Source: Cellulosimicrobium cellulans
GTDB lineage: Bacteria > Actinomycetota > Actinomycetes > Actinomycetales > Cellulomonadaceae
Length of the DNA: 64,000 nt
Reading direction: 5' to 3'
Assembly: GCF_016907755.1 (NCBI RefSeq)
Contig: NZ_JAFBCN010000001.1
Coordinates: 3,968,001-4,032,000 of the forward strand
Below are positions 2,177 through 59,759 of this stretch, piece after piece. The first letter of the stretch is position 1, and each line of letters starts with the position of its first letter. Below the pieces are notes generated by a model. The model searched no databases and had not been told where the DNA came from. It saw only the letters and a program-made list of their open reading frames with translations. The position numbers were made by a program, and so were the translations under genes.

Positions 2177-3843
2177 GCGCGCTCGTGGTTCGTGGTGCCC
2201 GGCTCGTCGAGCCCGACGGCGGTGCGTCCGCTCCCGTGGACGTGACGGTCCGCGGGGGCCTGGTCGAGAGCATCGACCCCTCGGCAGGGGCAGGGGCGCC
2301 GCCCGGCGACGTCGCGGTCGTCGAGGCGGACGGACGTCTGCTGCTGCCCGGGTTCGTGGACGCGCACGTGCACGGCGAGGCCGCGGTGCTGGACGAGGAC
2401 GTGCAGCTCGCGATGCTGCGCCAGGGCGTGACGAGCGTCGTCGTGGGGCAGGACGGGGTGTCCTACGCGCCCTCGCCCGCCCCGGGCGAGCAGCACGCCC
2501 GGGGCGACGAGACGGCGTCGGGCCTGCACGACGCCGCCACCTGGGCGGCCGGGTACTTCGCCGCGATCAACGGCACCCACCCCACGTTCCGCGGCGGGTC
2601 GGTCGCCGACCTCCTCGCGACCTACGACCGCACCACGCGGGTCAACGTCGGCTACCTCGCCCCGCACGGCACGATCCGGTACGCGGTCCTGGGCGCCGCC
2701 GCCCGCGCCGCGACGCCCGCTGAGACCGACCGCATGCGCGCCCTGCTCACCGCCGCGCTCGACGACGGCGCCCTGGGGATGTCGACCGGCCTGGAGTACG
2801 TCCCGGCCACCTACGCCGACGAGACCGAGCTCGTCGCCCTCACCAGCGTCCTCGCCGCGCGCGGGCTCCCCCACGTGTCGCACATGCGCGGCTACGAGGA
2901 CAAGGCCGGCCCGGCGTTCGCCGAGCTCGTGCGCGTCGCGCGCACCTCCGGCGTCGCGACCCACGTCTCGCACTACCACGGGCCCGCCGCCGAGCTGCTG
3001 GGGTACGTCGACGACGCCCACGCCCAGGGCCTGGACGTCACCTTCGACTCCTACCCCTACCTGCGCGGCTGCTCCATCCTGTCCATGGTGTCGCTACCGA
3101 CGTGGCTGCCCATCGCCGACGTCGACGCGACCGTGGCCGCCCTGGCGGACCCGGCCGTCCTGGAGCGCCTGCACCGCGAGCACTTCCCCACCCTGACCGA
3201 CCTGTGGCCCCGCGTCACGATGGCCGCAGTCCCTACCGGGGCGTCGGCAGGCGCACCGGCCGGCGAGCCCGCCGAGGACCTGACCTGGACCGAGGGCATG
3301 ACCCTGCCCGACGTCGCCGCACGCCTGGGCCTGACCCCCGCCGACACCGCGGTGCGCCTGCTCGTCGCGACGCGGCTGCGCGCCTCGTGCGTGTTCGCCC
3401 AGCCCCCGACCAACTCGCCGGAGTCCGTACGTGCCCTGCTGCGCCACCCGGCGCACGTCGGCGGGTCCGACGCGATCTACGCGCCCGTCGGAGGTGGCGG
3501 CCGCCCCCACCCGCGCGGGTGGGGCGCCTTCGCGCGCTTCTGCGCCGAGCACGTGCGTACGCTCGGGGACTGGACGTGGCACGACGCCGTCACGCACCTG
3601 TCCACGCGGCCCGCCGAGCGGTTCGCGCTCCCCGGGCGCGGCACGGTGGCGCCCGGCGCGGTCGCGGACCTCGCGCTCGTCGACCCCGACCAGATCCGCG
3701 ACGAGGCGACGTACGAGGACCCGCGTCGCCCGGCGTCGGGCGTGGACGACGTGCTCGTGGCGGGCGTCCCCGTCCTGCGCGACGGCCGGCTCACCGACGC
3801 CCTCCCGGGCCGGCCGCTGCGCCCCGACGCGACGCGGGCGTGA
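2173..3843 (+). CDS. N-acyl-D-amino-acid deacylase (D-aminoacylase family amidohydrolase)
   Basis: 556 residues. Family members hydrolyse N-acyl-D-amino acids to a free D-amino acid and a carboxylate, using one or two metal ions in a TIM barrel. The metal motif HVH (H65, H67) follows LLLPGFVDA. Later come LGMSTGLEYVPATYADETE, the His-containing strands VSHMRG and THVSHYHG, and GGSDAIYAPV followed by HPRGWG, all in the family order. The frame is open far upstream, but the real start is the GTG at 2173, which overlaps the hexosaminidase stop (GTGA, 2173-2176) and gives a normal N-terminus. Translational coupling is likely. It is followed after 52 nt by a D-amino-acid PLP enzyme, which fits a D-amino-acid product. 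A related dihydroorotase-like amidohydrolase cannot be excluded. Confidence 0.8.
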   Translation: MSALVVRGARLVEPDGGASAPVDVTVRGGLVESIDPSAGAGAPPGDVAVVEADGRLLLPGFVDAHVHGEAAVLDEDVQLAMLRQGVTSVVVGQDGVSYAPSPAPGEQHARGDETASGLHDAATWAAGYFAAINGTHPTFRGGSVADLLATYDRTTRVNVGYLAPHGTIRYAVLGAAARAATPAETDRMRALLTAALDDGALGMSTGLEYVPATYADETELVALTSVLAARGLPHVSHMRGYEDKAGPAFAELVRVARTSGVATHVSHYHGPAAELLGYVDDAHAQGLDVTFDSYPYLRGCSILSMVSLPTWLPIADVDATVAALADPAVLERLHREHFPTLTDLWPRVTMAAVPTGASAGAPAGEPAEDLTWTEGMTLPDVAARLGLTPADTAVRLLVATRLRASCVFAQPPTNSPESVRALLRHPAHVGGSDAIYAPVGGGGRPHPRGWGAFARFCAEHVRTLGDWTWHDAVTHLSTRPAERFALPGRGTVAPGAVADLALVDPDQIRDEATYEDPRRPASGVDDVLVAGVPVLRDGRLTDALPGRPLRPDATRA

Positions 3844-7916: not shown

Positions 7917-9116
7917 TCAGCGCCGCGAGGCGACGTGGAGGCTCGTGACGGTGGCGGCGAGGTCGGTCAGCCGGGAGGCCGTCCGGTCGAGGAGCTCGTC
8001 GAGCTCGATGGGGCCGGGGGCGATGCTGAACGCCGCAGCGATGCCGGCGTCGCGCGCCTGGTGCGCCGGCAGCAGGACGCGCCCCGCGAGCACGACGACC
8101 GGCGGACGGCGCGGTGCCTCGGCGGCGAGCGCGCCCATCGCGTCGGCGACCTTGCCGTTGACCGACTGCGAGTCGAACGACCCCTCGCCCGTGAAGACCA
8201 GGTCCGCGCGGCGGACCGCGTCCGGCAGCCCGACGGCCTCGGCGACGAGGCGCGCACCGGGCTCGAGCTCCGCGCCGAGGACGCCGACCATCGCCGCGGG
8301 CACGCCGCCCGCCGCGCCCGCGCCCGCGAGCTCGGACACGTCGAACCCGGCCTCCGCGACGAGCACGCCCGCCCAGCGGCGCAGGGCGTCGTCGAGGAAC
8401 GCGACGTCCGCCTCCTGGGCGCCCTTCTGCGGGCCGAACACGTGCGCCGCGCCCCGCTCGCCGTGCAGCGGGTTGGTCACGTCGACCGCGAGGCGCCAGC
8501 GCACGTCGCGGGCGCGCGGGTGCAGCCCGGACAGGTCGAGGCGCGCGACCCGCGCGAGCCCCTCGCCGCCGTCGGGCACCTGCGCGCCGCCGTCGTCCAG
8601 GAGCCGCGCGCCGAGACCGGTGAGGATGCCCGCGCCGCCGTCGGTCGACGCCGACCCCCCGAGGCACACGATCACCTCGTCCACCCCGGCGTCGAGCACG
8701 GCGGCGGCCGCGGCGCCCGTGCCGAGGGTGTGCGCGTGCAGGGGCTGCAGCGCGACGTCGCTCACCTGCGGCAGGCCGCTCGCCTCCGCGAGCTCCACGA
8801 CGCCCAGGCGCCCGTCGGCCGAGACCCCGAACCGCGCGGTGCGAGGGCGCCCGATCGCGTCGACCGTCGCGACCTCGCGCGCCGGCACGCCCCACACGGC
8901 GAGCAGCGCGTCGAGGGTGCCCTCGCCGCCGTCGGCCATGGGGAGCTCGACGACCTCGGCATCAGGGACGACGCTGCGCACCCCGGCGGAGACGGCGTGC
9001 GCGACGTCCGCGGCGCTCAGGCTGCCCTTGAACGAGTCGGGCGCGACGACGACGCGCAGCGGGCCGTCGGGGCGTTGCGGGGAACCGGTCTGGGTGGTGC
9101 TCGGCGTTGAGGACAC
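7917..9116 (-). CDS. Glycerate kinase (GarK/GlxK family)
   Basis: 399 residues. The enzyme phosphorylates D-glycerate to 2- or 3-phosphoglycerate and feeds glycolysis from glyoxylate or sugar-acid breakdown. Family marks: VVVAPDSFKGSLSAADVA near the N-terminus, ELPMADGGEGTLDALL, and VCLGGSASTDGGAGIL in the middle. I prefer the GTG at 9116 because TAGGAT (9122-9127, minus strand) ends 5 nt before it, consistent with a leaderless message; an ATG three codons upstream overlaps that hexamer. The downstream neighbour in the same direction is none; the MarR gene lies 79 nt upstream in the same orientation, so the two may be co-expressed. Confidence 0.87.
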   Translation of the reverse strand: MSSTPSTTQTGSPQRPDGPLRVVVAPDSFKGSLSAADVAHAVSAGVRSVVPDAEVVELPMADGGEGTLDALLAVWGVPAREVATVDAIGRPRTARFGVSADGRLGVVELAEASGLPQVSDVALQPLHAHTLGTGAAAAAVLDAGVDEVIVCLGGSASTDGGAGILTGLGARLLDDGGAQVPDGGEGLARVARLDLSGLHPRARDVRWRLAVDVTNPLHGERGAAHVFGPQKGAQEADVAFLDDALRRWAGVLVAEAGFDVSELAGAGAAGGVPAAMVGVLGAELEPGARLVAEAVGLPDAVRRADLVFTGEGSFDSQSVNGKVADAMGALAAEAPRRPPVVVLAGRVLLPAHQARDAGIAAAFSIAPGPIELDELLDRTASRLTDLAATVTSLHVASRR

Positions 9117-42171: not shown

Positions 42172-42869
42172 CGGACAGCGCGGCACCGACCCGGGTGCTG
42201 CTCGTCGACGACCAGGCCCTGCTGCGCATGGGCTTCCGCATGATCCTCGCCGCCGAGGACGACATCGAGGTCGTCGGCGAGGCCGGGGACGGCGAGACCG
42301 GGGTCGCGCAGGCCGCCGCGCTGCGGCCCGACGTCGTGCTCATGGACGTCCGCATGCCCGGCACCAACGGCATCGAGGCGACCGAGCGCATCGTCGCCGC
42401 CCAGCCCGAGTCGCGGGTGATCATCCTCACCACGTTCGACCTCGACGAGTACGCGTTCGCCGCGCTGCGCGCCGGCGCGAGCGGGTTCCTGCTCAAGGAC
42501 GCCAAGCCGGGCGAGCTCGTCGGGGCGATCCGCGCCGTCGCGAGCGGAGATGCCGCGGTGTCGCCACGCATCACACGCCGCATGCTCGAGATGTTCTCCG
42601 GACAGCTCCCCCAGGACGGCACCGTCGCCCCCGCCCCGAGCCAGACCGGCCTGCACGACCCCCGTCTCGCCGAGCTCACGGCGCGCGAGCTCGAGGTGTT
42701 CGAGGCACTCGGCGAGGGGCTGACGAACGCCGAGATCGCCGAGCGCTTCGTCCTGTCCGAGGCGACCGTCAAGACCCACGTCGGCCGCGTCCTCGGCAAG
42801 CTCGGCCTCCGCGACCGCGTCCAGGCCGTCGTCCTGGCCTACGAGACGGGCGTCGCCCGCCCCTCCTGA
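42168..42869 (+). CDS. Response regulator, NarL/LuxR type
   Basis: 233 residues. Receiver domain with D60 in VVLMDVRMPGTNGIEA, the acidic DD at VLLVDDQALLRMG and Lys in GFLLKDAKPGELV; then a linker and a LuxR HTH (LTARELEVFEALGEGLTNAE, followed by ATVKTHVGRVLGKL). It should bind DNA upstream of the ABC operon after phosphorylation. ATG at 42168; last gene of a four-gene coupled operon. The repeat block begins 14 bp after the stop. Confidence 0.92.
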   Translation: MTDSAAPTRVLLVDDQALLRMGFRMILAAEDDIEVVGEAGDGETGVAQAAALRPDVVLMDVRMPGTNGIEATERIVAAQPESRVIILTTFDLDEYAFAALRAGASGFLLKDAKPGELVGAIRAVASGDAAVSPRITRRMLEMFSGQLPQDGTVAPAPSQTGLHDPRLAELTARELEVFEALGEGLTNAEIAERFVLSEATVKTHVGRVLGKLGLRDRVQAVVLAYETGVARPS

Positions 42870-42882
42870 GCTCGTCCGCCCA

Positions 42883-42946
42883 CCGAGGTAGACCCCTGGT
42901 CCGCCGAAGTAGAGGCCTGGTCCGCCGAGGTAGAGGCGTGGTCTCG
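42883..42946. repeat. Three 21-bp tandem units, left cluster
   Basis: Units start at 42883, 42904 and 42925: CCGAGGTAGACCCCTGGTCCG, minus the last base, and two variants (CCGAAGTAGAGGCCTGGTCC, CCGAGGTAGAGGCGTGGTC). They are reverse complements of the units at 43228-43311, so the two clusters form an inverted pair. Confidence 0.8.
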
Positions 42947-42975
42947 TGGCCGACGGCGGTCTGGTCACCTTGGGT

Positions 42976-43072
42976 GGCGGGGTGGGTGGTGGTGCCGCGT
43001 CTACCATCCGCCGCTCGTTCCTCGCGGCTCCCGCCAGGCCCGCCACGACGCGGCACCACCACCCACCCCGCC
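42976..43072. repeat. 26-bp perfect inverted repeat with 45-nt spacer
   Basis: The arm at 42976-43001 (GGCGGGGTGGGTGGTGGTG plus CCGCGTC) is exactly complementary to 43047-43072. The stem is long enough to form a stable RNA hairpin or a cruciform. Confidence 0.8.
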
Positions 43073-43169
43073 GGCGTCGTCTCACCCTGGTCTTGCCGCA
43101 CCCCGGGCGACCGCCCGCGGTGTCGGTCCAGCCGGGGGTCGCCGCCGGCGCCTCCTGGGCGACCGGACC

Positions 43170-43196
43170 GTCGGCCGTCGGCCGTCGGCCGTCGGC
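43170..43196. repeat. GTCGGCC heptamer array
   Basis: GTCGGCC occurs at 43170, 43177 and 43184, and a partial unit at 43191-43196. Simple slippage-type tandem repeat inside the block. Confidence 0.7.
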
Positions 43197-43227
43197 GACG
43201 CTGCAGCGCAGGGCGAGCGGACGCCGT

Positions 43228-43311
43228 CGGACCAGGCCTCTGCCTCGACAGGCCACGGGTCTACCTCGGCGGACCACGGGTCTACCTCGGCGGACCACGG
43301 GTCTACCTCGG
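43228..43311. repeat. Four 21-bp tandem units, right cluster
   Basis: Units start at 43228 (degenerate), 43249, 43270 and 43291. The last two are identical over the 21 bp that begins CGGACCACGGGTCTACCTCG. They are inverted relative to the left cluster. Reading frames across them show a repeating heptapeptide (YLGGPRV), but I see no start signal or codon pattern to support a gene. Confidence 0.8.
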
Positions 43312-43356
43312 CGAGTTGGCCCGGGCGAGCCCGAGCCGCGGTGCGGCGACGGCCGA

Positions 43357-43471
43357 GCGGTGGGGGTGGGCTCGGATGCGAAAGGGCGTCAAAGCGGCGC
43401 TCCCAAAACCCACACCCGACAGACCACGGTGGCGGCGCCGCAGCCCCGAGCACCGAGCCCACCCCCACCGC
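43357..43471. repeat. 19-bp perfect inverted repeat with 77-nt spacer
   Basis: GCGGTGGGGGTGGGCTCGG (43357-43375) faces CCGAGCCCACCCCCACCGC (43453-43471). A single 17-bp unit of the 21-bp family (CCACGCCTCTACCTCGG) follows at 43501-43517, right before the stop of the RND gene. Confidence 0.78.
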
Positions 43472-43521
43472 GGACCCGACCACGCGGGCCCGAAACCCCA
43501 CCACGCCTCTACCTCGGCGGA

Positions 43522-46500
43522 CTACCCCTCCGCAACGGGCTGGGCGGCGGCCTTCTCGGTGTTCTCGGCCTTCTCGGCCTTGTCGGCCTCGGCCTGGGCG
43601 GCGGCCTCCTGCTTGGCCGCCTTCTTCGCCGCGCGCTTCTCGCCGCGGCGCTCGGCGAGCGTGTACAGCACCGGCACGACGACGAGCGTGAGCAGCGTCG
43701 AGCTGAGCAGGCCGCCGATGACGACGAGCGCGAGGGGCTGGGAGATGAACGCCCCGCCGCCGGTGATGCCGATCGCCATCGGGGTGAGCGCGAAGATCGT
43801 CGCCGCCGCCGTCATGACGATGGGGCGCAGGCGCTTGCGCGACCCCTCCATGACGGCGTCGTCGAGCGACCGGCCACGCTCGCGGTACTGGTTGATGAGG
43901 TCGATGAGCACGATCGCGTTCGACACGACGATCCCGACGAGCATGAGCAGGCCGATGAGGGCCGGCACGCCGAGCGGCGTCGCGGTGGCGAGCAGGAGGA
44001 GCAGCGCGCCCGTCGCGGCGAACGGGATCGACACGAGCAGGATGAACGGCTGCAGGAGGCTGCGGAACGTCGCGACCATGACGAGGTACACGATGAGGAT
44101 CGCGACGAGCAGCGCGAGCCCGAGGTCGGCGAACGCGTCGGCCTGGTCGGACGCGACACCGCCGATCTCGACGGTCGCCCCGCCCTCCAGCTCGAGACCG
44201 TCGATCGCGGTCGTGAGCTCGGTCGTGAGCGCACCGAGGTCCTGGCCCGCGGGCGTGACGGAGATCGTCGCGCTGCGCTCGCCGTCGACCCGGGTGATCG
44301 AGGTGGGGACCTCGACCTCCGCGACCTCGGCGACCTGCGTGAGGGGCACGGGCCCCGCCGCGGTGGGCAGCACGACCTGCTCGAGCTCGGCGACCGTCGC
44401 CGGCGCCTGACCTGCGAGGACGCGGACCTGGACCGGGCCGTCGCCGAGGTTCACCGTGCCGATCGGCGCCGGAGACATCGTCCCTGCGACCGTCCCGGCC
44501 ACCTGGGTCTCGGTGAGCCCGACGGCGGCGGCCGCGTCGCGGTCGACGGTCACCTGGACCGTGGACTGCGCGGAGGCGAGGTTGTTGGTCACCTGCGCCG
44601 CGCCGTCGGCGCCCTCGGCGAGCTCCTGCACGGCCGCCGCGGCGGCCGTGAGGGTCTCGGTGTCGGGGGCGCGGACGACGAGGTCCACCGTCGAGCTGCC
44701 GAACGCGGCGTCCGCCCCGGCGACCTCGATGCCCTCGCTCGACTCCCCGCCCAGCCCGGAGACGGCGTCGCGCACGTCCTCCTGGGCCGCGACGGCGTCG
44801 GCGTCTGCGTCGAGCGTGACGGCGAACGTCGCCGTCGGGGACCCGCCGCCGCCGAAGAACGCGGCCTCGGGCCCGCCCGCCGTACCGACGGTCGTCTGCA
44901 CGGTCGCCACGCCGTCGACGTCGAGGAGCGCCTGCTCGACGTCGCGCGCCGCGGCGTCCTGCGCCTCGAGCGACGTGCCGGGCGCGAACGACTCGGTGAC
45001 GGTGAGCGTGTCCTGTCCGGTGTCGCCGAGGAAGTTGGTCTCGAGCCGCGGCACGAGCGCGAGCGTGCCGGCGAGGATCGCGACGGACACGCCCAGGGTG
45101 ATCACGGGGTGGCGCAGCGCCGCGCGCAGCGTCGGGACGTACCCGCGCTGCCACGGCCCGCGGCGCTCCTTGGCCTCCGCCGTCGCACGGGCGCGCTCCC
45201 CGGCGAGGCGCGCGGCCTCGGGGTCGGCCGGGACGGGCGGGGACTTGATGAACCAGTACGCGAGGACCGGGACGATCGTCAGCGCGACGAACAGCGACGC
45301 GAGCATCGCGATCGCCACGGTGAGCGCGAAGGGCCGGAAGAGCTCGCCGACCATGCCGCCCACGAGCGCGATGGGCAGGAAGACGGCGACCGTCGCCACG
45401 GTCGAGGCGGTGATCGCGCCCGCGACCTCCTTGACGGCGCCGATGATGGCGCCCACCTTGGCCTCGCCGTACGACAGGTGCCGCTTGATGTTCTCGATGA
45501 CGACGATCGAGTCGTCGACGACGCGGCCGATCGCGACCGTCATGGCGCCGAGCGTGAGGATGTTCAGCGTGTAGCCCGTGGCGTTCATGACGATGAACGT
45601 CACGAACAGCGACAGCGGGATCGACACGGCCGAGACGAGCGTCGAGCGCAGCGACGCGAGGAACAGCAGGATCACGACGACGGCGAACAGGAGGCCGAGG
45701 AGACCCTCGGTCGCGAGGCCCTCGATCGACTCCTCGATGAACGGCGCCTGGTCGAACACGACCTCGACGCGCACGTCCTGCGCCTCGAGCACGCCGGAGA
45801 GGTCGTCGACGGCGTCCTGGACGGCGTGCGACACCTCGACCGTGTTGCCCGCGGGCGTCTTGGTGATCGCGACGGCGAGCGCGTTCTCGCCGTCGAGGCG
45901 CGAGTACGACGTCGCGGGCTCGGGGCCCGCGGTCACGGTCGCGACGTCGCCGAGCGCGACGGGCGCGGTGCCGGGGGCGGCCGTCGGGGACACGAGCGGC
46001 AGCGCGGCGAGCTCGTCGACGGTCGTCACGGCCGTGCCGACCTGCACGCTGAGGGTCCGGTCGCCGTCGGAGACGGTCCCGGCGGGGATCACGACGCCGT
46101 TGTCCTGGAGGATCGTGGCGACCTGCGCCGGGCTGAGCCCGGCGGCGGCGAGCGCAGCCGGGTCGAGGTCGACCGTGACCTGCTGGTCGGCGATGCCGCT
46201 CACCGCGACGCTGCGCACGCCCTCGACGTCCTCGAGCGCCGGGACGACGCTCGACGTGACGGTGTCGGCCAGCGCCGCGTCGTCGGCTCCGCCGGACACG
46301 GCGAGCTGGATCACGGGCAGGTCGTCCACCGATCCCGTGACGACCTGCGGCTCGACGTCCTCGGGGAGCTGGGACTGCAGGCGCGTGATCGCCGTCTGGA
46401 GCTGGGAGGCGGCGGCGTCCATGTCCGTGCCGTAGGCGAACTGCACGGTCGTCACGGACATGCCGGTCGACGACGTCGACGTGACGTCCTCCACGCCCTT

Positions 46501-46725
46501 GACGGCGCGCGCGGCCGTCTCGACGGGGACGGTCACCTGCTGCTCGACGATCGCCGGGGCGGAGCCCGGGTACACGCCGACGACGGCGGCGGTCGGGATC
46601 TGCAGGCTCGGGATGAGCTCCTGCTTGAGCGACCCCATGCTGATGACGCCGAAGATCGCGATCGCGACCGTGGCGAGCGCGACGAGCGCGCGGTTGGCCA
46701 GCGACAGCCGGGCGAGACGGGACAC
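43522..46725 (-). CDS. RND-family efflux transporter (AcrB/MmpL-like HAE1 type)
   Basis: 1067 residues, twelve helices in the RND layout with two large extracytoplasmic loops. Helix 1 starts RALVALATVAIAIFGVISM; helix 4 carries the proton-relay pair D404-D405 in AIGRVVDDSIVVIENIKRHL; the second half has a matching region VGIVVSNAIVLIDLINQYRERG. The cytoplasmic C-terminus is a Lys/Ala/Glu-rich coil (about 45 residues). No membrane-fusion or outer-membrane partner is nearby, as expected in a monoderm. GTG at 46725 with GGAGG upstream. Divergent from a MarR gene, which probably controls it. Likely expels drugs or lipophilic metabolites. Confidence 0.88.
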   Translation of the reverse strand: MSRLARLSLANRALVALATVAIAIFGVISMGSLKQELIPSLQIPTAAVVGVYPGSAPAIVEQQVTVPVETAARAVKGVEDVTSTSSTGMSVTTVQFAYGTDMDAAASQLQTAITRLQSQLPEDVEPQVVTGSVDDLPVIQLAVSGGADDAALADTVTSSVVPALEDVEGVRSVAVSGIADQQVTVDLDPAALAAAGLSPAQVATILQDNGVVIPAGTVSDGDRTLSVQVGTAVTTVDELAALPLVSPTAAPGTAPVALGDVATVTAGPEPATSYSRLDGENALAVAITKTPAGNTVEVSHAVQDAVDDLSGVLEAQDVRVEVVFDQAPFIEESIEGLATEGLLGLLFAVVVILLFLASLRSTLVSAVSIPLSLFVTFIVMNATGYTLNILTLGAMTVAIGRVVDDSIVVIENIKRHLSYGEAKVGAIIGAVKEVAGAITASTVATVAVFLPIALVGGMVGELFRPFALTVAIAMLASLFVALTIVPVLAYWFIKSPPVPADPEAARLAGERARATAEAKERRGPWQRGYVPTLRAALRHPVITLGVSVAILAGTLALVPRLETNFLGDTGQDTLTVTESFAPGTSLEAQDAAARDVEQALLDVDGVATVQTTVGTAGGPEAAFFGGGGSPTATFAVTLDADADAVAAQEDVRDAVSGLGGESSEGIEVAGADAAFGSSTVDLVVRAPDTETLTAAAAAVQELAEGADGAAQVTNNLASAQSTVQVTVDRDAAAAVGLTETQVAGTVAGTMSPAPIGTVNLGDGPVQVRVLAGQAPATVAELEQVVLPTAAGPVPLTQVAEVAEVEVPTSITRVDGERSATISVTPAGQDLGALTTELTTAIDGLELEGGATVEIGGVASDQADAFADLGLALLVAILIVYLVMVATFRSLLQPFILLVSIPFAATGALLLLLATATPLGVPALIGLLMLVGIVVSNAIVLIDLINQYRERGRSLDDAVMEGSRKRLRPIVMTAAATIFALTPMAIGITGGGAFISQPLALVVIGGLLSSTLLTLVVVPVLYTLAERRGEKRAAKKAAKQEAAAQAEADKAEKAENTEKAAAQPVAEG

Positions 46726-58805: not shown

Positions 58806-59759
58806 CTACCCGCGTCGCCGGAACCAGGAGCGTCGACGCGGCTCCTGCGCGGGCTCGGCCGCCGGGCCTGGTTCCTCCGTCACCGCGGGCTCTCCGGGTT
58901 CCGGCACCTCGGCAGTGTCCGCGTCGGGCACGTCGGCGGTGTCCGCGTCGGGCACGTCCGCGGAGTCCACGTCCGGGTCGACGGCGGTGTCCGCGCCGGG
59001 CGCGTGGGCGTCCGGAGCCGCTGCTCCCGGCTCGGGATCGCGCGCCGGCGCGGACACCGCGCGCGCCGTCGCCGCGATGCCGGCGATGCGGCCGCGCTCG
59101 TCGAACCGGACGACCACGCTCCCGTCAGGCAGCGTGAGCACGAGCGCGCCGTCGTCGTCCGACGTCTCGAGCCCGCGCGCGGCCGCGTAGGACGCGACCG
59201 CGCGGCGGTGGTCGACGACCGTGACGGACAGCAACCCCTCGCTCAGCACCCGCACGACGCGCGGCACGCTCGGCGCGGGCAGCGCGAGACCGTCGGCGTC
59301 GAGGAGGAACCACGCGCGCGTCCCCCCGCCGACGGGGGCGCTGTAGTGGGTCCAGGACCCGGTGACGGCCTTGGCCGCGAGCGCGAGGCGGTACGGGAGG
59401 TCGTCGGTGAGCGGCAGCTCGGACTCCGTCGCCTCGCGCAGTCCGGTCTCGCGGGTCTTCTCGGCGGCGCGCAGCACGTCGTCGGGAAAGTCGTTGACGT
59501 TGTTCCACGCCCACATCCAGCTCCCGGGGCCGGGCGCGGCCGTGCCGAGGAACTGGAGCCGGCACGTCGTCTCCTCACCGGTGGCGGAGGTGAAGGTGAA
59601 CGACCCCGTCGTCATCTCGGCGCCCCATGCGTCGTCGCCGTGGTGGTCGACGAGGTGGAGCTGGTGCTCGTGCGAGAGGAACGCGGCGTCGTCGACGAGC
59701 TCCTGGAGGGCCGGGGCGGTCAGTTCTGCCGTGCCGTGCGCGGTCTGCGGCTCCGTCAT
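58806..59759 (-). CDS. DUF6882 family protein with acidic repeat tail
   Basis: 317 residues. The core (about 10-160) has WGAEMTTGSFTFTS, CRLQFLGTAAPGPGSWMWAW and PLTDDLPYRLALAAKAV, matching the DUF6882 pattern as I remember it. The C-terminal 90 residues are Asp/Pro/Ala-rich with an 8-residue repeat (ADTADVPD), encoded by 24-nt tandem DNA units near 58904-58970, and end in a basic RRRSWFRRRG that could contact membrane or nucleic acid. Cytoplasmic; no enzymatic motif. ATG at 59759. Function unknown. Confidence 0.7.
   Translation of the reverse strand: MTEPQTAHGTAELTAPALQELVDDAAFLSHEHQLHLVDHHGDDAWGAEMTTGSFTFTSATGEETTCRLQFLGTAAPGPGSWMWAWNNVNDFPDDVLRAAEKTRETGLREATESELPLTDDLPYRLALAAKAVTGSWTHYSAPVGGGTRAWFLLDADGLALPAPSVPRVVRVLSEGLLSVTVVDHRRAVASYAAARGLETSDDDGALVLTLPDGSVVVRFDERGRIAGIAATARAVSAPARDPEPGAAAPDAHAPGADTAVDPDVDSADVPDADTADVPDADTAEVPEPGEPAVTEEPGPAAEPAQEPRRRSWFRRRG

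What the first reader, a model, noticed from the sequence alone, without database searches (positions are those of the whole stretch)
42883..43517. 640-bp noncoding block of 21-bp units arranged as an inverted pair around and beside two long perfect hairpins
Seen directly: three 21-bp units (42883-42946), four units in the opposite orientation (43228-43311) and one more at 43501-43517 give eight related copies. Inside are a perfect 26-bp inverted repeat (42976/43047), a GTCGGCC array (43170-43196) and, to the right, a perfect 19-bp inverted repeat (43357/43453). The block fills the space between two convergent genes. No transposase or target-site duplication is visible. It is much larger than a terminator needs to be. 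It may be a nonautonomous mobile element, a chromosome-organising site, or a structured RNA source.
Basis: partly seen in the sequence, partly recalled or inferred. Interest (0 to 1): 0.75.

Follow-up and report, generated by a model that had tools for sequence, protein, structure and literature searches.

The report
Dispersed DNA hairpin mosaic between genes
The block is a mosaic of three repeated, hairpin-forming DNA pieces that recur across the Cellulosimicrobium genome; one of them is an apparently undescribed palindromic element with a nearly fixed core and changing but matching arms, found in other actinomycetes and inside several DNA-repair genes.

Summary
The repeats and hairpins are real and not chance. 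The block is a mosaic of three dispersed families. U is the 21-bp unit: 35 strict copies here, none for the reversed control. A is the 26-bp hairpin: 23 copies here; 49 of 150 family genomes, 12 of 25 genera. B is the 19-bp hairpin: 16 of 17 genus genomes, 2 of 133 others.

A has a nearly fixed unpaired core, while its outer and inner stems change between copies and stay paired: 647 both-side changes, 0 of 500 shuffles as high. G-U is only 10 of 2,038 paired cells and not favoured among departures, which points to DNA rather than RNA. Copies favour convergent gene ends and also lie inside ORFs, including PcrA, HrpA, a RecB-like protein and LigD. Presence differs between related strains.

Best reading: a REP/RPE-like non-autonomous palindromic element nested in a 3'-end mosaic. 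It is not a RAYT-driven REPIN (no Y1 transposase in 17 of 17 genus genomes) and matches no Rfam family. The mobilising enzyme and any host function are unknown. Verdict: new variant of a known kind.

The parts
42883..42943 (+). three tandem 21-bp U units, reading CCGAGGTAGANNNNTGGTC on the + strand
   Evidence: 35 strict copies genome-wide, reversed control 0
42944..42975 (+). 5' flank of the A module, similar in close copies
   Evidence: alignment of own-genome copies by eye; BLAST hits start here
42976..43072 (+). hairpin A: outer arms 42976-43001/43047-43072; inner stem 43010-43014/43024-43028; conserved core strands CTACCATCC (43001-43009), TCGTTCCTC (43015-43023), TCCCGCCAGGCCCGCCACGA (43029-43048)
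43073..43134 (+). 3' flank of the A module (CTCRCCCTGGTC and CGGGCGACYGCCCG stretches)
   Evidence: shared by close own-genome copies; kept in G011 where the hairpin is missing (L283)
43168..43196 (.). 7-bp CCGTCGG array, 4.1 copies; in G000 among the fetched loci shared only with the second near-full copy (L071)
43228..43313 (-). four tandem U units in the opposite orientation
43357..43471 (+). hairpin B: outer arms 43357-43375/43453-43471, continued past bulged A 43376 by TGC/GCA (43377-43379/43450-43452); inner stem 43394-43400/43435-43441
43472..43499 (+). tail of the B module (GGACCCGACC-GCGGGC-GAAACCC type), repeated in tandem beside some other copies
43500..43520 (-). single U unit next to the transporter stop codon

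Best explanation
The block is a 3'-end mosaic built from dispersed, non-autonomous palindromic elements of a REP/RPE-like kind. U units occur singly, in tandem and as inverted pairs at gene ends, often convergent ones; A and B hairpin modules sit inside or beside them. Shown: A's outer and inner stems vary widely between copies but stay Watson-Crick paired, while its core of about 40 nt is nearly fixed across copies and genera and in several reading frames. Shown: A and B modules are present at some sites and absent at the same sites in relatives, and one absence looks like a slippage deletion between 7-bp direct repeats. Inferred: A is recognised and spread as folded single-stranded or extruded DNA by an unidentified trans-acting enzyme that reads the core. 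Inferred: its arms are kept matching by template-switch correction of the palindrome, by selection, or both. At convergent gene ends the hairpins may serve secondarily as two-way 3' boundaries; that step is untested.
For: Dispersed family. Fixed core with covarying stems. Little G-U: 10 G-U, 2,028 Watson-Crick and 115 other cells. Convergent bias: 8 of 15 intergenic A copies against 47 of 245 gaps without A, p=0.005. Intragenic copies in four of the six reading frames/orientations, in linkers of PcrA, HrpA, a RecB-like protein, biotin carboxylase and LigD. Both arms of the PcrA copy changed together in L201 and L196. Presence/absence: L226/L075, L219/L086 and L233/L066, L280/L061, 12 of 33 G011 loci without flank match in G000 A/U loci. 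Slippage-type loss L265/L283. The same gene pair carries A, B only, or another hairpin in different species.
Against: No mobilising gene was found: Y1_Tnp 0 of 17 genus genomes; IS110 absent from G000. No target-site duplication was established, and events were not polarised into gain or loss. Many copies are old and shared: 18 comparable loci between G011 and G000 and 30 between G016 and G011 in the same orientation, so movement is slow. With all 14 PcrA sequences the core is no more conserved at third positions than other windows. In one search two of five covariation measures are weaker (10/500 and 88/500 shuffles as high), and that alignment was fitted to the model. Hairpin B has more G-U, so the DNA argument is for A only. 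If G-U is counted without the six outermost pairs, its depletion against a 1/6 expectation is only p=0.05.
Confidence: 0.55

Rival explanations
1. The block is primarily a two-way transcription terminator or mRNA 3'-end protector for the convergent genes; the repeats spread and persist because hairpins at gene ends are useful.
For: Convergent bias. In five relatives the same junction holds a different hairpin whose 25-bp arms have 0-2 mismatches. Within convergent gaps U units read away from the nearer gene in 21 of 25 cases (units of one array are not independent).
Against: No U-tract terminator was found in 42700-43700. A copies lie inside long ORFs. In tandem gaps U orientation is 10 sense to 15 antisense. 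Termination alone does not explain a nearly fixed loop core shared across genera. Two relatives seem to have almost no gap at this junction.
Confidence: 0.2
2. Hairpin A is a structured RNA (small RNA or cis element) with covarying stems, expressed from many loci.
For: Strong covariation and conserved unpaired nucleotides; very stable folds.
Against: G-U is 10 of 2,038 paired cells and not favoured among departures. No Rfam match. Intragenic copies lie sense and antisense and in different frames. 0 sigma-70-like promoters in 42700-43700 by a simple scan that does not cover other promoter types.
Confidence: 0.12
3. A classic MITE: U units are terminal inverted repeats of a transposase-driven element and A/B are its passive filling.
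For: Most close own-genome A copies are preceded by a U unit in one orientation (by eye); opposite U units flank the block here and the A copy of L226.
Against: U occurs at many sites without A. At this gene pair G003 and G014 have A and B but no GAGGTAGA in the locus. No target duplication was established. IS110 in G011 enters the middle of a U unit, using it as a target and not as an end.
Confidence: 0.08

Closest known systems
REP elements, GTAG and CGTC super-families (Di Nocera et al. 2013, PMC3733652; abstract, sections 6 and 15 and passages read)
   Same: Palindromic, dispersed, mainly in convergent and tandem intergenic gaps; intragenic copies fall partly in DNA replication/repair genes, UvrD/REP helicase, RecBCD and DNA ligase among them; CGTC REPs lack a dedicated transposase.
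   Different: A is about 100 nt with a 26-bp outer stem, an asymmetric internal loop and an inner stem, against 20-40 bp REPs with short stems and an unpaired GTAG or CGTC end tag. The paper notes frequent G-T pairs in GTAG stems, here rare. Its text has no occurrence of 'actinobacteria' and its phylum lists name none.
Rickettsia palindromic elements (RPE; PMC10969869, passages read)
   Same: Palindromes of the order of 100-150 bp inserted in frame in unrelated genes and in intergenic DNA.
   Different: The review says RPEs encode a conserved peptide; here the frame and orientation differ between genes, and the DNA core rather than a peptide is shared.
REPIN/RAYT systems (search listing and passages of PMC3733652; otherwise recalled)
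   Same: Non-autonomous hairpin DNA spread through a genome.
   Different: No Y1 transposase in 17 of 17 genus genomes.
REP targets of IS621/IS110 (PMC11208160, passages read)
   Same: An IS110-family element uses a dispersed repeat as its target: all five copies detected in G011 sit at the same point of a U unit.
   Different: The target here is the 21-bp tandem unit; bridge RNA and its pairing were not analysed.
BIME-type mosaics (recalled)
   Same: Several repeat types combined in inverted order in one intergenic gap.
   Different: Units, sizes and hosts differ; no gyrase or IHF test was made.

Membership tests
REP (GTAG/CGTC super-families) | dispersed palindromes mainly at gene 3' ends, partly intragenic | tested here: met
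REP (GTAG/CGTC super-families) | 20-40 bp unit with unpaired GTAG or CGTC tag at one end of a short stem | tested here: not met
   A spans about 100 nt with a 26-bp outer stem; its foot is fully paired and varies between copies
REPIN | RAYT (Y1/HUH) transposase in the genome | tested here: not met
   PF01797: 0 of 17 genus genomes, 2 of 59 relatives; positive in 5 of 14 control genomes
RPE | palindrome inserted in frame in protein genes | tested here: met
   5 hosts in G000; PcrA of 12 of 17 genus genomes examined has no insert-free linker only in G012; insert in 15, half in G008, none in G012
RPE | conserved encoded peptide | tested here: not met
   different frames and both orientations in different hosts
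MITE | terminal inverted repeats matching an autonomous element | tested here: inconclusive
   inverted U units often flank A, but A also occurs without U; no autonomous partner was found, and none was searched for beyond PF01797 and PF01548
MITE | target-site duplication | tested here: inconclusive
   none evident in L226/L075 or L280/L061; a 7-bp repeat at L265/L283 fits slippage better
intrinsic terminator | short G+C hairpin followed by a T run | tested here: not met
   0 in 42700-43700
Rfam RNA family | match to a curated covariance model | tested here: not met
   0 matches to E 1 in 42600-43800; in 10 related loci 3 sub-threshold matches, the one over A being a miRNA model at 32.9 bits against a cut-off of 83
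integron attC-like folded recombination site | recombination of the folded strand by a tyrosine recombinase | not tested
   considered from memory only; no integrase was searched for

The most novel reading that the evidence does not exclude
Hairpin A is a new class of structure-recognised DNA element of actinomycetes: a folded-strand site with a fixed bipartite core and wide freedom in its arms, kept at the DNA level even inside coding sequence, and functionally tied to enzymes that handle DNA hairpins and ends. It lies in linkers of PcrA, HrpA, a RecB-like protein and LigD, so those genes may carry a hairpin that reports on, or is processed by, their own products.
Probability: 0.12. Interest if true: 0.88.

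Novelty: new variant of a known kind. Interest (0 to 1): 0.62.

Why it matters
The paper searches made here (listed in Tried and rejected) found no description of such a family in Cellulosimicrobium or related actinomycetes, and the REP survey read in part names no actinobacteria. Hairpin A separates what must be fixed (the core) from what may vary (the arms), which should make its unknown recogniser easier to find. Its presence at the same positions in repair and helicase genes of related species, and in gene classes that also carry unrelated REPs in other phyla, makes an open question testable: do palindromes in repair genes do something, or are those genes simply tolerant targets?

Tried and rejected
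Phage and plasmid collections: no match at E 1e-5. Viral contigs: 0 exact matches to a core pattern. Rfam: no family. RAYT/Y1 as mobiliser: rejected for this genus. IS110 as mobiliser of A: rejected for G000, which has none; in G011 it uses U as a target. Replichore-polar signal: orientations listed were compared by eye with chromosome halves in G000 and G011, assuming an origin near coordinate 1; no consistent bias; no formal test. Core inversion between the arms: 0 of 30 comparable G016/G011 loci and 0 of 18 G011/G000 loci flipped, so the opposite orientations in LigD are rare flips or separate insertions. A lead from memory: the loop GAGGAACGA (reverse strand) resembles loops of repeats that I recall from CGTC-REP-bearing genomes; a full-text search for such strings found nothing, so it stays a lead. 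Novelty searches (full text, CC-licensed PMC library). Searches returned no paper; of the others I opened passages of three (PMC3733652, PMC10969869, PMC11208160) and judged the rest by the listing.

Selections that matter; the 11-species third-position result (16 of 18 invariant; 0 of 537 other windows as high) leaves out three species with decayed copies (G007, G009, G010), a choice made after seeing the alignment; with them it is 9 of 18, and 274 of 534 windows are as high. G001 was left out by oversight (G009 also out); G008 (half insert) and G012 (no insert) could not be used; 72 loci were chosen by hand for diversity, not all copies; one of its 75 rows is the window hairpin on the opposite strand, and L148 and L280 gave two rows each. 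One search scored at most 27 candidates per genome and at most 10, with strict filters, so their counts are floors. The pattern used finds 21 of the 23 own-genome copies. The gene caller is a simple codon-usage script trained on this window, so contexts in other genera are weaker.

Full report
OBSERVATION. The 652-bp gap lies between two convergent genes, a response regulator (42195-42869, +) and an RND-type transporter (43522-46725, -). It contains three U units, hairpin A, a 7-bp array, four opposite U units, hairpin B and one more U. Each strand of 42870-43530 folds about 12 standard deviations below shuffled sequence (20 shuffles each).

HOST AND SPREAD. The window is G000:C1:3968001-4032000 of a 4.79-Mb genome. 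U: 35 strict copies here, 0 for the reversed control. The whole block has a second near-full copy (92%, query 17-663) and a looser third (74%, query 67-666). BLAST with the whole block hit 42 of 59 genomes, G000 included; the 16 other genus members have 10 to 49 matching pieces each, and most hits in other genera are weak.

HAIRPIN A. In 14 own-genome copies the loop strands are nearly invariant while the arms differ: 24 of 31 pairs have changes on both sides, 0 of 500 shuffles as high on any of five measures. A covariance model found 49 of 150 family genomes, that is 17 of 17 in the genus and 32 of 133 outside it, in 12 of 25 genera, and 10 of 394 class genomes, G000 included. Full counts in three genomes: 23 (G000), 34 (G011), 37 (G016). 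An exact core pattern also occurs in Luteimicrobium, Actinomyces and Oerskovia; in 13 such loci 11 to 20 of the 20 adjoining bases pair in an ungapped count, so the outer stem is perfect in some and poor in others. On 74 distinct rows from 72 hand-chosen loci, 94.7% of cells pair, with 647 both-side changes (0 of 500 shuffles); the number of pairs with a both-side change and the number of pair types are less exceptional (10 and 88 of 500). There are 10 G-U, 2,028 Watson-Crick and 115 other cells. If G-U were one of six equally likely single-step departures, 10 of 125 is fewer than expected (p=0.004; without the six outermost pairs p=0.05). I read this as a palindrome maintained at the DNA level. 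The alignment was fitted to the model, which favours pairing, but not Watson-Crick over wobble in particular. Hairpin B also covaries (11 of 29 pairs on both sides, 0/500), but it has more G-U pairs and is almost confined to the genus (16 of 17; 2 of 133 others), so the DNA argument is made for A only.

POSITION. The 21 A copies found by pattern in G000 fall into 8 convergent, 6 tandem, 1 divergent, 5 intragenic and 1 unresolved. Convergent gaps are over-represented: 8 of 15 against 47 of 245 gaps without A (p=0.005). G011 (34 copies): 15 convergent, 9 tandem, 3 divergent, 5 inside, 1 at an edge, 1 unresolved. G016 (37): 12 convergent, 15 tandem, 2 divergent, 7 inside, 1 unresolved. In convergent gaps U reads away from the nearer gene in 21 of 25 cases; in tandem gaps it is 10 sense to 15 antisense; 9 units lie inside predicted genes.

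INSIDE GENES. The five G000 hosts are PcrA, an RNase_H_2/AAA RecB-like protein, HrpA (DUF3418), a biotin carboxylase and LigD. Further hosts by Pfam: LigD and an NHL-thioredoxin protein in other species of the genus, and in other genera HrpA, the RecB-like protein, the NHL protein, ABC ATPases, a 2Fe-2S thioredoxin protein and a hydantoinase. Glycine dehydrogenase (L143) and a P-type ATPase (L144) rest on very weak model hits (E 0.003 and 0.04). A lies at the same alignment position in HrpA of two genera (L049, L277, L141), in the RecB-like protein of two genera (L048, L116) and in the NHL protein of three genomes; in LigD of two species it lies in the same linker but in opposite orientations; one HrpA copy (L121) is in another linker. 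In PcrA, by eye, the inserted peptide is recognisable in 15 of 17 genus members, half present in G008, absent from G012 and from the 7 other-genus proteins examined (24 of the 39 genomes). Orthologous PcrA copies changed both arms together, for example L201 and L196, while L197 has mismatches. In 11 species 16 of 18 core third positions are invariant and no other window of 537 reaches that; including three species with decayed copies removes the effect (9 of 18; 274 of 534 windows as high). So selection on the core inside PcrA is suggestive, not proven.

THE SAME GENE PAIR IN RELATIVES. The transporter is in 17 of 17 genus genomes, with the response regulator beside it in 16. In those 16, A is found by the model in 7 (G000, G003, G004, G006, G011, G014, G016). 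G001 has shortened arms joined without the core, G015 has B-like material without A, five (G002, G005, G007, G009, G010) have a short different hairpin whose 25-bp arms have 0-2 mismatches, and two (G008, G013) seem to have almost no gap.

GAIN AND LOSS. Of 33 G011 A loci, 12 have no flank match of 400 bp among the fetched G000 loci, which include all 23 A copies of G000; their empty sites were not seen. Eighteen are shared in the same orientation. In L226/L075, G011 has nine U units, A and an opposite U, where G000 has two U units and the opposite U. In L280/L061 two inverted A modules are absent while a hairpin between them is kept. L219/L086 and L233/L066 differ by B with its surroundings. 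L059 carries a nested insertion of about 53 nt in A's loop that L229 lacks. Between G016 and G011 every fetched G011 locus (33 of 33) has a match in the G016 set, and 3 of 35 G016 loci have none: a probable 7-bp slippage deletion (L265/L283), a G-rich disrupted copy (L266/L284) and a locus with a different right flank (L263/L282). None of these events was polarised with an outgroup.

IS110. G011 has five IS110-family copies (PF01548 and PF02371; the fifth gives two matches), all at the same point in a U unit beside an A locus; three were compared with the uninterrupted G016 allele. G000 has none. U is thus an IS110 target, as REP is for IS621 (PMC11208160, passages).

COMPARISON. Di Nocera et al. 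2013 (PMC3733652; abstract, sections 6 and 15 and passages) describe REPs with the same genomic habits, many intragenic ones lying in DNA synthesis and repair genes, and CGTC REPs without a transposase; a word search of the text finds no actinobacteria. A differs in size, core, rarity of G-U and lack of the end tag. It behaves like a REP/RPE but fails REP's size/tag criterion and RPE's peptide criterion, and the RAYT test fails for the genus.

JUDGEMENT. The block is a mosaic of dispersed palindromic elements. Hairpin A is a widespread element that the searches made here did not find described, probably acting as folded DNA. Mobility is likely but its enzyme is unknown; a role in 3'-end formation is possible and untested.

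Noticed in passing
L223:1329-2698, L230:1154-2531, L234 from 1362, L269, L270 (G011): IS110-family element of about 1.37 kb inserted at the same point of a 21-bp U unit in all five copies detected in G011; G000 and G016 have none.
   Followed up: partly
L059 near 3163-3217 (G000): A further hairpin-forming insertion of about 53 nt nested in the loop of hairpin A, absent from the orthologous copy L229.
   Followed up: partly
L174, L175, L177, L178, L179 (response regulator/transporter junction): A different short hairpin of the type GCCGAGCAGGTGGTTCYGG takes the place of A/B/U in five species; similar pieces are visible in L219 and L233.
   Followed up: partly
L280:2370-2440 (G011) and L061 (G000): Another hairpin (GAGATGCGAGTTGTTGCCCTCTCC...) between two inverted A copies, kept where the A copies are absent; similar strings are seen beside B copies in L069 and L082.
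   Followed up: no
L053:3165-3330 (G000): Beside the intragenic A copy in a biotin carboxylase gene the 3' arm with its flank is repeated in tandem in frame (DHDGAHTPRLLTSAVGSPA repeats).
   Followed up: no
L284 near 8970-9020 (G011): Where G016 has hairpin A, the G011 record reads a long run of G; this may be a sequencing or assembly fault at a hard hairpin.
   Followed up: no
window 58903-59010: A 24-bp tandem array of 4.5 copies (78% matches), the highest-scoring tandem repeat of the window.
   Followed up: no
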